This document shows, piece after piece, positions 19,148 through 23,740 of a stretch of DNA of 64,000 nt (positions are counted from its first letter, which is position 1; every line of letters starts with the position of its first letter). Position numbers and translations under genes: made by a program. The stretch is taken from NCBI GenBank assembly GCA_035710515.1, contig DASTDE010000003.1:1-64000 (forward strand). The letters run 5' to 3'. This DNA comes from Candidatus Rubrimentiphilum sp. (GTDB taxonomy: Bacteria; Vulcanimicrobiota; Vulcanimicrobiia; Vulcanimicrobiales; Vulcanimicrobiaceae). A model generated the notes under the pieces. The model saw only the letters and a program-made list of their open reading frames with translations. It was not told the DNA's origin and ran no database searches.

Positions 19148-20074
19148 TTATGAGAGCCGTTCCCGGCCGTGCGGCGAGGTCAGATCGAGTACCGGACCGA
19201 TCGGGACGATGCGCGTCGGGTTAATCTCGGTGTGCGTCACGTAATAGTGGCGCTTGATGTGATCGAAGTTCACAGTTTCCGCAATGCCGGGGATCTGATA
19301 CAGATCGCGCAAGTAACCCCAGAGGTTGGGATAGTCCACGATGCGGCGCAGATTGCACTTGAAATGGCCGTAATAGACCGCGTCAAAGCGGATCAGCGTG
19401 ACGAAGAGCTTCCAATCGGTCTCGACCGGATGCGCGGCGATTAAATACCGGCGCGTAGCTAGGCGCTGCTCCAACTCGTCGAGCGTCTCGAAGACGCGAT
19501 ATGCAGCTTCTTCATACGCTCGCTGCGACGTCGCAAACCCGGCGCGGTAGACGCCGTTGTTCACGGTTTCATAAATCAGCTCGTTGAGCGCGTCGATCTC
19601 CACGCGGTGCCCGCTCGGGTACAGATCGATGTGGTCTTTCGCGAGCGACTCAAATCCGGTTTCAAAGATGCGCATGATGTCGTCATCCGAGTTGTTGACG
19701 ATCCGTTTGGCCCGCTTGTCCCACAGCACCGGCACCGTCACGCGGCCGCGATAATGCGGGTCCGTCGCGATATACGCTTCGCTCAGAAAGTGAAAGCCGT
19801 TGATTGGATCGCGCGAGTAGCCGGGTCCGTCGCGGAATGCCCACCCACGTTCGTCGCGGATCGGATCCACCGCCGTCATGCCAATCGCATCTTCGAGCCC
19901 TTTGATCTTGCGGACGATGATCGTTCGCGATGCCCACGGACAGGCCCACGATACATATAAGTGGTAACGCCCGGCCTCGGCAGCAAACGGTTCCCGAAAT
20001 GCGTCGTCCTGCCGCTTGAAGTTTCCGTCGCTGCTCTGCTCGTCCGGAAATTGCGGCTTGATCCCGGTGCTCAC
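19148..20074 (-). CDS. Glutathionyl-hydroquinone reductase (xi-class glutathione transferase, YqjG/PcpF-like)
   Basis: 308 residues, GTG start at 20074. It has the xi-class hallmark: catalytic Cys in SWACPWASRTIIVRK near residue 45, preceded by RYHLYV, then VPVLWDKRAKRIVNNSDDDIMRIF as the glutathione-binding segment, and a helical C-terminal domain (NGVYRAGFATSQRAYEEA; DWKLFVTLIRFDAVYYGHFKCN). These enzymes reduce S-glutathionyl-hydroquinones to hydroquinones with glutathione. The gene starts four bases after the multicopper oxidase-ZIP stop, so the two are almost surely co-expressed. This pairs an enzyme that could make quinones with one that clears their glutathione adducts (inference). Confidence 0.88.
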   Translation of the reverse strand: MSTGIKPQFPDEQSSDGNFKRQDDAFREPFAAEAGRYHLYVSWACPWASRTIIVRKIKGLEDAIGMTAVDPIRDERGWAFRDGPGYSRDPINGFHFLSEAYIATDPHYRGRVTVPVLWDKRAKRIVNNSDDDIMRIFETGFESLAKDHIDLYPSGHRVEIDALNELIYETVNNGVYRAGFATSQRAYEEAAYRVFETLDELEQRLATRRYLIAAHPVETDWKLFVTLIRFDAVYYGHFKCNLRRIVDYPNLWGYLRDLYQIPGIAETVNFDHIKRHYYVTHTEINPTRIVPIGPVLDLTSPHGRERLS

Positions 20075-20078
20075 GTGC

Positions 20079-21962
20079 TCAGCCGCCGTTGAGCGCCAAA
20101 ACGATTTCCGTTGTCAGCGCGACCAAAAACCCGCAGGCCAGCATTGTGGTTACGAGCGGCGTGATGCCCATGCTGCGCCGGAGCACGGCCCAGATCTCCC
20201 CGATGACGAAAACGAGCGCGCCGATTGCAGTCGCCAGAAACAAGACCGACAGAATCGGCGATTGGAACGTATACCCGACAACCGTGCCAAGAAAGGTCGG
20301 GCCGCCCGCGATTAAACCGGCCAGCCCGAGTTGTCCCCACGTCGGAACGACGCGTCCGGAAAGCGGCGCGGCGATTCCGAAACCTTCGGTTGCGTTATGG
20401 AGCGCAAAGCCGATGATCAAGCCGACGGCAATCGCCGTCGCGCCGCTCGCCGCCGAAGCGCCGATCGCCAAACCCTCAGCGAAGTTGTGCGCGCCGATGC
20501 CGATCGCGATGATTGCGGCCAGCACGAGCGGCTGATGCACGGTTGACGCGGCGCGGCTGCTCAAGCGGTTCGCAAGCAGACCCAGGCCGACCAAGCCGAT
20601 AAATAGCCCGCCCACATACGCAATTGCGAGCTCGATGACACTCCAAGGCGGACCTCCGCCGTGCCAATAGCGTGCGGCTTGGACCAACGGCGCGGTCGCG
20701 CTGCCGGCAATTTCAACGACGAGATAGACGAGAATCCCGATTGCGAGCGCGTTCAGAGCGGCGATTGTCGTCTGCGAGACGTTGCGCATGCGCGCGATTG
20801 GCAGTCCCAAGAAGATCGTGAGACCTGCAATTGCGCCAAGCGCGACGGTCCATCCAAAGGACAACGCTGCCAGCGGGCCATGGCCGAATGCGGGCAACAT
20901 CTTCCGCATCTCTGTGTTCATCGCGGCCAGCGTATTTGGCGTGCCTTCATAATGAATAGCTGTGATCAGGCCGTCCGGCATGCCGGTTCCATCTTCGGTA
21001 TGGTCGATCACGTGACAGTGGACGATCCAAGTGCCGGGCTTTTGATTCGCATCAACCATCACGTCGACGCGCTGTCCGGGCCCGAGCAGCACCGTGTCTT
21101 CGACGTCGCGGTAGGTGACCGGCTGCGCGTCGCGCGCCACGATCAACTGATAATGGCCGTGCGTGTGCATCGTGTGCATGTTTTCGCCGGAGATGTTGAT
21201 CCAGCGGATGCGCACCCGCTGACCTTTGCGTACTTCGATCGGCGTTGTGTAGGGATATTCTTTGCCGTTAATCGTGAAATGATTTTCGCTCAGGCTCTGA
21301 ATCGGCCACGACGACAACATTTCGACGTAGTCGCGATCTGCGCGCTCCGCCGCCGGTGCGTGTGCGGGCAGCACGACGATCGCGCCGTATAGACCGCTGT
21401 TGAGCATCTCTTCGTTGTCGTGCGAGTGATAGATGAACGTGCCGGGCGTATCGGCCGTGAAGACGTACCGGTATGACTGCCCCTGCATGACGAGGGGCTG
21501 CGAGATTCCCGCGACGCCGTCCATGCTTACCGGAATCTCGTGAATGCCGTGCATGTGCAGCGTGTCGGGAACGCTCTGCTCGTTGCGGTAATCGATCACC
21601 ACACGATCGCCTTGATGCGCGACGAGTGTCGGACCGGGAACGACGCCATTATAGGTTTTCGCGAGTACGGTCAAACTCGGCTGAAGCGACCACGGCGCAT
21701 CGCGCTCGACGAGATGAAAGGTCCGGGTGCGTCCGCGTACGTCGGGAATCGCGGCGAAGGTGCCGTCTTCGCGCCGCACCAGTTTCGACTCGCCGGGAGC
21801 GGGCGTCGCTGCCGGAATTGCCCCTTGCAAGGGCTGCATTCCGATGCTGGCCGGATTTACGCCGGTGGTGGTTTCGTCGGTGTCCGCCAGCGCGGCCGGA
21901 GCCGCCAGCGCAAGAAGCAGGCCCAGGGCAAGTAAGCCTCTCCTGATTACAAAGTTTGGCAC
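20079..21962 (-). CDS. Fusion of a two-domain multicopper oxidase with a ZIP-family metal transporter
   Basis: 627 residues, GTG start at 21962. Signal peptide about 1-26. Residues 60-345 form two cupredoxin domains with a full set of copper ligands: HMHG (136-139), HSH (179-181), HTMHTHGH (263-270), and HCH-x3-H-x6-M (315-328), so types 1, 2 and 3 copper can all be bound. From about 365 to 627 there are seven or eight transmembrane helices with the two ZIP metal-site motifs HNFAEG (492-497) and HNATEG (522-527). Copper oxidase would lie outside the inner membrane, attached to the permease. This recalls the yeast Fet3/Ftr1 pair, but as one chain and with a ZIP instead of an iron permease. Substrate could be Fe(II), Mn(II), Cu(I) or phenols; unknown. 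The frame is continuous through the junction, so this is not an assembly join visible to me. Confidence 0.85.
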   Translation of the reverse strand: MPNFVIRRGLLALGLLLALAAPAALADTDETTTGVNPASIGMQPLQGAIPAATPAPGESKLVRREDGTFAAIPDVRGRTRTFHLVERDAPWSLQPSLTVLAKTYNGVVPGPTLVAHQGDRVVIDYRNEQSVPDTLHMHGIHEIPVSMDGVAGISQPLVMQGQSYRYVFTADTPGTFIYHSHDNEEMLNSGLYGAIVVLPAHAPAAERADRDYVEMLSSWPIQSLSENHFTINGKEYPYTTPIEVRKGQRVRIRWINISGENMHTMHTHGHYQLIVARDAQPVTYRDVEDTVLLGPGQRVDVMVDANQKPGTWIVHCHVIDHTEDGTGMPDGLITAIHYEGTPNTLAAMNTEMRKMLPAFGHGPLAALSFGWTVALGAIAGLTIFLGLPIARMRNVSQTTIAALNALAIGILVYLVVEIAGSATAPLVQAARYWHGGGPPWSVIELAIAYVGGLFIGLVGLGLLANRLSSRAASTVHQPLVLAAIIAIGIGAHNFAEGLAIGASAASGATAIAVGLIIGFALHNATEGFGIAAPLSGRVVPTWGQLGLAGLIAGGPTFLGTVVGYTFQSPILSVLFLATAIGALVFVIGEIWAVLRRSMGITPLVTTMLACGFLVALTTEIVLALNGG

Positions 21963-22240: not shown

Positions 22241-23740
22241 GTGTCTAACCCGTTCCGCGCCCGCGCCAACGCGCCGGTGGCGCTGATTACCATCACCGTG
22301 ATGCTCGGGCTGATTATGGCGATCATCGACGCGACGATCGTCAACGTCGCGCTCAACGACATCGCCGGCAACCTCGGCGCATCGATCGACGAGGTCGCGT
22401 GGGTCGCCACCGGCTACATTCTCGCCAGCGTCGTGGTCATGCCGCTCAACGGTTGGCTCACCGCATATCTGGGCCGCAAGAATTTTTACGCCGGCTGTTT
22501 GGCGATCTTCACGATCTCTTCGCTGCTCTGCGGGACAGCGCACAGCATTTGGCAGCTCGTCTTCTATCGCGTGATTCAGGGCTTCGGCGGCGGCGCGCTG
22601 CAGCCGACCGCGCAAGCGATTCTTTTTGAAACCTACCCGCCCGCCAAGCGCGGCGCCGCCATGGCTATCTTCGGTTTGGGCGCGATGGTCGGGCCGGCGA
22701 TCGGACCCACGCTGGGCGGCTACATCATCGACAACTACACCTGGCCGCTGATCTTCTACATCAACATCCCGATCGGCATCGTGGCATTCTTGATGACGCT
22801 CATGTTCATTCCGAATCCGCATTTCTTGGAGAAACCAAAAGGGGGCGTGGACTGGATTGGCTTGGGGCTGCTCACGGCGGGCCTCGCTTCGCTCCAGTAC
22901 GTCCTGGAGCGCGGCCAGCATGACGATTGGTTCGACTCCGGCACGATCTGGACGCTGTCGATCGTCGCGATCGTCACGCTCACGTGGTTCATCTATAAGA
23001 CCATGCGCGACAAATATCCGCTGGTGGATATTCGTGTCTTTCGTTTTCGAACGTTTACGATCGGCAACATCATCGGCGTCGTGCTGGGATTCGGTTTATT
23101 TGGAACGAGTTTGATCTTGCCGTTGTACTTCCAAACGGTCTTGGGCTTTACGGCATTTCAAACCGGAATGGCGCTGCTGCCCGGTGCCGTTGCAACTGCG
23201 ATCAGCATGCTCATGGTCGGCGCGCTCACTCGTTACTTGGATGCCCGCGCGATGGTCATCTTCGGCATGCTGCTCTTCGGGCTCTCAACCTGGTGGATGG
23301 GCGGCCTGACGCAAGATGCCGGCTACTGGGACGTCTTCTGGCCGCGCGTCTGGCAAGGACTCGCGCTCGGTTTTATGTTCGTTCCGCTGACTACCGTGAC
23401 GCTTGGCGCGGTTCCAAAGGAAGAACTCGCCGGCGCGACCGGTGTCTCCGCGCTCATCCGTCAGCTGGGCGGCAGCTTCGGCATCGCGATACTCACCACG
23501 CTGCTCGCGCGTCAGGCCGCGATCGCGTGGAGCGAATTGGCCTCCGGCGTGACCAACGCGCACGGCTATTCGCTCGGCACGCTCACGAGTATTGTCGCGC
23601 AGCAGTCGGCGGTGAACAGTTACGACTACCTGTTCAGGCTCTCGGCCATCGTCTTCTTCGTCTCCGCGCCGCTGGTGATCTTCATGCGGCCCTCACGCCG
23701 CGCGGCGGCTGCCGCGGCGGCGGCTTTGGCGGCCGAATAG
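22241..23740 (+). CDS. DHA2-family (EmrB/QacA-type) drug:proton antiporter
   Basis: 499 residues, GTG start at 22241. About 14 transmembrane helices. Signature motifs: motif D1 DATIVNVALNDI in helix 1, VAWVATGYILASVVVMPLNGWLTAYLGRK (motif A) between helices 2 and 3, RVIQGFGGGALQPTAQA (motif B), and GLGAMVGPAIGPTLGGYI (motif C, antiporters). It exports amphiphilic compounds. In a diderm the partner would be an EmrA-type adaptor and an outer-membrane channel, neither of which is adjacent. It is divergently transcribed from the 22204 operon with only 36 bases between starts. Confidence 0.9.
   Translation: MSNPFRARANAPVALITITVMLGLIMAIIDATIVNVALNDIAGNLGASIDEVAWVATGYILASVVVMPLNGWLTAYLGRKNFYAGCLAIFTISSLLCGTAHSIWQLVFYRVIQGFGGGALQPTAQAILFETYPPAKRGAAMAIFGLGAMVGPAIGPTLGGYIIDNYTWPLIFYINIPIGIVAFLMTLMFIPNPHFLEKPKGGVDWIGLGLLTAGLASLQYVLERGQHDDWFDSGTIWTLSIVAIVTLTWFIYKTMRDKYPLVDIRVFRFRTFTIGNIIGVVLGFGLFGTSLILPLYFQTVLGFTAFQTGMALLPGAVATAISMLMVGALTRYLDARAMVIFGMLLFGLSTWWMGGLTQDAGYWDVFWPRVWQGLALGFMFVPLTTVTLGAVPKEELAGATGVSALIRQLGGSFGIAILTTLLARQAAIAWSELASGVTNAHGYSLGTLTSIVAQQSAVNSYDYLFRLSAIVFFVSAPLVIFMRPSRRAAAAAAAALAAE

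What the first reader, a model, noticed from the sequence alone, without database searches (positions are those of the whole stretch)
20079..21962. Single-chain fusion of a copper-complete multicopper oxidase and a ZIP metal transporter
All ligand motifs of a two-domain multicopper oxidase (HMHG, HSH, HTHGH, HCH...M) are followed in the same frame by seven to eight helices with both ZIP metal-site motifs (HNFAEG, HNATEG). ZIP proteins move divalent cations, while the oxidase would change the metal's oxidation state. This could be an oxidation-coupled uptake or detoxification device, comparable in logic to Fet3/Ftr1 but built from a different permease.
Basis: partly seen in the sequence, partly recalled or inferred. 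Interest (0 to 1): 0.8.

Follow-up and report, generated by a model that had tools for sequence, protein, structure and literature searches.

The report
Copper oxidase fused to metal transporter
One gene, kept for a long evolutionary time in a little-studied group of soil bacteria (Eremiobacterota), welds a copper enzyme that oxidises its substrate outside the cell membrane to a metal transporter inside the membrane, a pairing that many other microbes have only as two neighbouring genes.

Summary
On the minus strand, 20079-21962 is one 627-residue frame. It holds a Sec-type signal, a two-domain multicopper oxidase (MCO) with its T1 copper in domain 2 (type B), a ~25-residue linker, and an eight-helix ZIP domain that folds like BbZIP. 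It is not an assembly join: about 64 of 149 genomes of the phylum carry both halves intact in one frame, at 46-85% identity, in three families of one class. Both halves are under strong purifying selection (dN/dS ~0.05-0.08 within the genus). In this class it is nearly the only ZIP. A Deinococcus plasmid carries the reverse order (ZIP then MCO). Fifteen plasmids of Actinobacteria, Deinococcus, Bacillaceae, Cyanobacteria and haloarchaea carry the same kind of ZIP directly downstream of an MCO as a separate gene, but that MCO has T1 in domain 1 (type C). Ammonia-oxidising archaea have such a pair too, and Cu uptake has been proposed for it (PMC7785015). So MCO-ZIP coupling is a known kind; the fusion, with another MCO type, is a new variant not found in the literature searched. 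Best reading: an extracytoplasmic metallo-oxidase feeding an attached divalent-metal permease. Metal and direction are untested. Fet3/Ftr1 logic fits Cu(I) better than Fe(II).

The parts
20079..21962 (-). MCO-ZIP fusion gene, 627 aa (GTG start at 21962, stop 20079-20081)
21885..21962 (-). Sec-type signal peptide, residues 1-26 (...APAALA|DTDE); cleavage site read by eye
   Evidence: sequence; helix 3-20 in model; hydrophobic start shared by homologues
21363..21725 (-). MCO cupredoxin domain 1 (res ~80-200); trinuclear ligands H136,H138 (21546-21557) and H179,H181 (21420-21428); no T1 Cys
20937..21350 (-). MCO cupredoxin domain 2 (res ~205-342); HTMHTHGH 21153-21176 and HCHVIDH 21000-21020, giving T1 = H263, C316, H321
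20865..20936 (-). Linker res 343-366; short helix with Met348 (26/28) and Met352 (28/28) conserved
20082..20864 (-). ZIP (GufA/ZupT-like) permease domain res 367-627, eight TM helices, N- and C-termini outside
20472..20489 (-). TM4 metal motif HNFAEG (res 492-497)
   Evidence: invariant H, N, E, G; aligned to BbZIP H177/N178/E181
20382..20399 (-). TM5 metal motif HNATEG (res 522-527)
   Evidence: invariant H, N, T, E, G; aligned to BbZIP Q207/D208/E211
20295..20306 (-). TM6 GGPT (res 553-556): P555 and T556 invariant; takes the place of BbZIP Glu240 (M2 site)

Best explanation
A membrane-bound metallo-oxidase/permease in one chain. The signal peptide sends the two-domain type B MCO to the outer face of the inner membrane (periplasm, inferred), where it probably trimerises as known type B enzymes do, with interfacial trinuclear sites and T1 coppers facing a central tunnel. 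There it takes electrons from a metal ion (most likely Cu(I), otherwise Fe(II)) and passes them to O2. The ZIP domain, N-terminus outside, directly under the oxidase, carries a divalent transition metal across the membrane through an M1-type site. The fusion keeps valence control and transport at one place, most simply for acquisition of a divalent ion, for example Cu(I) oxidised to Cu(II) and passed to the ZIP. Shown by computation: the fusion, its conservation, complete ligands in both halves, topology, BbZIP-like fold, purifying selection on both halves. Inferred: trimer, substrate, direction, physical hand-over.
For: All T1 and trinuclear ligands essentially invariant, and M1 ligands H492/E496/H522/E526 invariant, across sequences down to ~46% identity. 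dN/dS about 0.05-0.06 in MCO and 0.04-0.09 in ZIP within the genus. Positive-inside signal of 8.1 K+R per sequence in predicted inner loops against 1.1 in outer loops puts the N-terminal MCO outside. BbZIP fold. Closest solved MCOs are two-domain enzymes, 2zwn and 3g5w. Linkage elsewhere: ZIP-MCO fusion in reverse order and 15 adjacent MCO-ZIP gene pairs among 18 plasmid records inspected. The archaeal MCO1-ZIP pair is modestly up under Cu limitation (log2FC 0.81 and 1.33; PMC7785015). Type B trimer/tunnel from PMC13151041. M1 is required and M2 auxiliary, absent in some ZIPs (PMC11952358).
Against: No expression or activity data. A trimeric MCO and the dimeric BbZIP do not match in symmetry. 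ZIPs are not known Cu(II) transporters. No conserved metal gene lies beside the fusion in Eremiobacterota. One lineage (G118) keeps the MCO but has a single TM helix in place of the ZIP, so the oxidase can do without it. Type B MCOs can be phenol-oxidising laccases. The archaeal data come from the type C pair, a different MCO class.
Confidence: 0.5

Rival explanations
1. Efflux and detoxification: the ZIP lets excess Fe(II), Mn(II) or Cu out, or the oxidase simply oxidises toxic metal at the membrane. Oxidation at the exit traps the ion outside, as hephaestin/ceruloplasmin does for ferroportin.
For: Several unfused pairs and the Deinococcus reversed fusion sit in metal-resistance neighbourhoods: CDF, ArsR/SmtB, CadD, heavy-metal P-type ATPases. 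Oxidising Fe(II) or Mn(II) yields ions a ZIP should not carry back.
Against: ZIPs normally move metal into the cytoplasm. Other pairs sit beside DtxR-type regulators, Nramp or CbtAB, pointing to nutrition. The archaeal pair is induced by Cu limitation, not excess.
Confidence: 0.25
2. The ZIP part is mainly a membrane anchor, or an independent transporter merely tethered; the MCO is a membrane-bound laccase acting on phenols, with no functional coupling.
For: G118 replaces the ZIP by one TM helix. Type B two-domain MCOs can be laccases (PMC13151041). Within the genus the next gene is a GST-family gene, which could handle quinones.
Against: M1 ligands of the ZIP are invariant and its dN/dS is nearly as low as that of the MCO. 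The same two partners are linked in opposite order and as gene pairs elsewhere. The GST link is confined to one genus and one near relative, and broken by an insert in two genomes.
Confidence: 0.18
3. Assembly or binning artefact, or a frameshift join of two neighbouring genes.
For: Many genomes of the phylum are metagenome-assembled (record titles).
Against: Same junction in about 64 genomes, with 46-85% identity across it, on contigs up to 2.8 Mb.
Confidence: 0.01

Closest known systems
MCO1 + adjacent ZIP permease of ammonia-oxidising archaea (Nitrososphaera viennensis NVIE_000600/NVIE_000590)
   Same: A two-domain MCO coupled by gene order to a ZIP; proposed Cu(I) oxidation with divalent uptake (PMC7785015, PMC5817080, PMC7819960)
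   Different: Two genes, not one. In the one archaeal MCO with a ZIP-type ORF beside it available here, the T1 Cys is in domain 1 (type C) and trees put it with the paired MCOs. The paired ZIPs read here carry an extra N-terminal TM and ~100-residue domain.
Two-gene MCO + 'metal transporter' operons on plasmids of Rubrobacter, Deinococcus, Rhodococcus, Cytobacillus/Peribacillus/Sutcliffiella, Pseudanabaena/Chroococcidiopsis/Chondrocystis, haloarchaea
   Same: The same kind of ZIP (EGLAIG, GFxxHNxTEG, GxP in TM6), with the MCO directly upstream
   Different: Unfused; type C MCO; ZIP of 384-420 aa
Deinococcus sp. KNUC1210 WP_239052023.1
   Same: MCO and ZIP in one chain; T1 in domain 2
   Different: ZIP first, MCO second; first His of HCH is Gln; in a metal-resistance island on a plasmid
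DUF4396-MCO fusions (Afipia, Deinococcus wulumuqiensis)
   Same: Membrane domain plus type B-like MCO in one chain; beside copC/copD or a heavy-metal P-type ATPase
   Different: Membrane domain is DUF4396, N-terminal, not ZIP
Fet3/Ftr1 and hephaestin/ferroportin
   Same: Multicopper ferroxidase working with a permease (PMC11817551, title and abstract)
   Different: Unrelated permeases, separate proteins; no FTR1 in this genome

Membership tests
Two-domain multicopper oxidase, type B | Two cupredoxin domains with four His motifs | tested here: met
Two-domain multicopper oxidase, type B | T1 Cys/His in C-terminal domain only | tested here: met
   C316, H263, H321 in D2; D1 has HSH/HTH without Cys; definition from PMC13151041
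Two-domain multicopper oxidase, type B | Homotrimer with interfacial trinuclear sites | not testable with these tools
   No multimer prediction offered
Two-domain multicopper oxidase, type B | Axial Met at T1 | tested here: inconclusive
   Met328 in 19/28, at Cys+12 rather than the usual Cys+10
ZIP (SLC39, GufA/ZupT-like) | Eight TM helices, BbZIP fold | tested here: met
ZIP (SLC39, GufA/ZupT-like) | M1 site residues in TM4/TM5 | tested here: met
   H492, E496, H522, E526 invariant
ZIP (SLC39, GufA/ZupT-like) | Complete M2 site (BbZIP N178, D208, E240) | tested here: not met
   N493 kept; D208 aligns with N523, E240 with T556; [quoted passage not shown]
ZIP (SLC39, GufA/ZupT-like) | Pfam PF02535 gathering score | tested here: not met
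   32.7 against 35.1 bits; over cut-off in 4 of 117 genomes of the class, one of them a stand-alone ZIP
Archaeal MCO1 + ZIP pair | Type C MCO, separate ZIP gene | tested here: not met
   Type B and fused
Fet3/Ftr1 | Permease is FTR1 family (PF03239) | tested here: not met
   Permease is ZIP; no FTR1 in genome
Fet3/Ftr1 | Ferroxidase activity coupled to Fe(III) permeation | not testable with these tools
   Needs biochemistry

The most novel reading that the evidence does not exclude
A single-chain redox-gated metal transporter: the type B MCO trimer sits over the ZIPs so that metal oxidised at T1 is handed from its central tunnel to the permease, making this a bacterial oxidation-coupled metal uptake (or efflux-trap) protein of a mechanism not described for ZIPs.
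Probability: 0.3. Interest if true: 0.85.

Novelty: new variant of a known kind. Interest (0 to 1): 0.6.

Why it matters
Fusion of two partners that other lineages keep as neighbours argues that MCO and ZIP act on the same substrate or in the same complex. That is an open question for ammonia-oxidising archaea, where MCO1 has been linked both to copper uptake and to hydroxylamine oxidation. One expressible polypeptide makes the question directly testable. The ZIP half usually scores below Pfam's cut-off, so domain databases may be missing this architecture.

Tried and rejected
Chance or antisense ORF: the other long frames on both strands are antisense to the conserved gene. Assembly join: rejected. 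Operon with the downstream GST-family gene as the key to function: conserved only in the genus plus one near relative, with an insert between in two genomes. Conserved neighbours across the phylum: none close to the fusion. Single origin of all MCO-ZIP couplings: deep MCO branches are unresolved (a fusion+pair group has support 69/79; holding the Eremiobacterota rows, or these plus the Deinococcus fusion, together is not rejected, p-AU 0.40 and 0.21), so independent or shared origin is left open although the MCO types differ. Viral contigs: no relative. Phage records: no fusion. Taxonomic range outside the phylum could be sampled only through plasmid records plus one genome-contig scan that reaches close relatives only; a search centred on a Deinococcus plasmid locus was not accepted by the tool. 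Five literature searches pairing multicopper oxidase with ZIP, and one with Eremiobacterota, returned no title or abstract describing a fused MCO-ZIP protein; most papers were not opened.

Full report
WHAT IS THERE. The finding lies on the minus strand. Frame 20079-21962 encodes 627 residues from a GTG start with no internal stop. Residues 1-26 read as a Sec-type signal. Residues ~80-342 are two cupredoxin domains (Pfam Cu-oxidase_3 1.5e-30, Cu-oxidase_2 3.5e-23). Residues 367-627 are a ZIP domain (Pfam 6e-8; 32.7 bits against a cut-off of 35.1, so automatic annotation would not call it).

IS IT REAL. Search of 149 genomes of the phylum found both halves in one place in 65 genomes, 64 of them without an internal stop in the gene, at 46-85% identity, in three families of one class (count made by hand from the table; the TAA flagged for G111 lies outside the 621-residue ORF). 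Named GenBank records are Candidatus Eremiobacterota MAGs. Every near-complete match to the ZIP half lies in a frame long enough to hold the MCO, or its frame is broken (G120, G124) or cut by a contig end. Outside the fusion, the Zip model found few other candidates in the class, chiefly stand-alone frames in G091 and G107. Within the genus dN/dS is 0.05-0.06 for the MCO and about 0.04-0.09 for the ZIP.

ANATOMY. All ten of H136, H138, H179, H181, H263, H266, H268, C316, H317 and H321 are invariant in 28 homologues, H315 in all but one. The T1 Cys is in domain 2 and domain 1 has none, which is type B in the usual classification (definition in PMC13151041). A linker of about 25 residues has Met352 invariant and Met348 in 26 of 28; its role is unknown. 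The AlphaFold model of the whole chain has mean pLDDT 79.7 and pTM 0.53, so the relative placement of the halves is not to be trusted; the ZIP half alone has pLDDT 90.3 and eight helices. Foldseek finds two-domain MCOs for the first (2zwn, 3g5w) and only BbZIP structures at E<=0.001 for the second. Charges in the loops put the N-terminus outside (8.1 against 1.1 K+R per sequence), so the MCO lies on the outer face. The M1 residues are invariant; in M2, Asp208 and Glu240 of BbZIP align with Asn523 and Thr556. M1 is required and M2 auxiliary and not present in all ZIPs (PMC11952358).

WIDER PICTURE. A protein search of plasmid records found the same kind of ZIP in 37 records. I inspected 18: fifteen have a separate MCO gene directly upstream (Rubrobacter, two Deinococcus, two Rhodococcus, three Bacillaceae, three Cyanobacteria, four haloarchaea), one (Deinococcus sp. 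KNUC1210) is a fusion in the opposite order, and two Mycolicibacterium ZIPs have no MCO beside them. The separate MCOs have the T1 Cys in domain 1 (type C), as does the archaeal one from the flank of Pro-Nvie1, which is followed by an ORF resembling only the N-terminal part of the paired ZIPs. In trees the paired MCOs (with the archaeal one) and the paired ZIPs each form a fully supported group apart from the fusions, but deep MCO branches are unresolved, so whether the coupling arose once or several times is open. G118, a single-contig genome, has the orthologous MCO with one TM helix in place of the ZIP; this looks like a loss, with weak branch support.

GENOME CONTEXT. The genome has this as its only Zip-model match, two Nramp genes, one ZnuA-like gene and no FTR1. 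Neighbouring genes are conserved within the genus and partly in one relative only; no neighbour is conserved across the phylum.

HOW IT WORKS. Best reading: an extracytoplasmic metallo-oxidase joined to a divalent-metal permease. Ftr1 takes Fe(III); a ZIP should not, so Cu(I) to Cu(II), as proposed for archaea (PMC7785015, PMC7819960), fits better than Fe(II). Efflux with oxidative trapping is the main rival; mere anchoring is less likely because the M1 site is invariant. Substrate, direction, trimer state and hand-over are inferred.

NOVELTY. MCO-ZIP coupling by adjacency has been described in archaea. A fused form, with a type B MCO, did not appear in the open literature searched. New variant of a known kind.

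Noticed in passing
L068 798-2942, L069 1071-2942: DUF4396-MCO single-chain fusions, one beside copC/copD/DUF411 and one beside a heavy-metal P-type ATPase: a second membrane domain welded to a type B-like MCO; function of DUF4396 unknown.
   Followed up: partly
L063, L076, L077, L082, L079, L080: Unfused MCO-ZIP pairs often have a Rieske protein or plastocyanin gene just downstream, a possible electron-transfer partner.
   Followed up: no
L063, L064, L070, L080: DtxR-type metal-dependent regulators (once with Nramp, once with CbtA/CbtB) near unfused MCO-ZIP pairs, hinting at Mn/Fe/Co rather than Cu control.
   Followed up: no
L061 5832-7049 (G118): Ortholog of the MCO half with a single TM anchor in place of the ZIP, in a single-contig genome: apparent natural loss of the permease.
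   Followed up: partly
L075 1039-1446: In the Nitrososphaera Pro-Nvie1 host flank the MCO is followed by a 135-residue ORF that resembles only the N-terminal domain of the paired ZIPs; the permease part is missing.
   Followed up: no
window 19148-20074 (-): GST-family gene starting 4 bp after the fusion in the window; in L004 and L005 about 1.8 kb lies between the two.
   Followed up: partly
window 22241-23740 (+): EmrB-type DHA2 efflux MFS gene transcribed divergently from the fusion, 81-95% identical in the genus and in G080.
   Followed up: no
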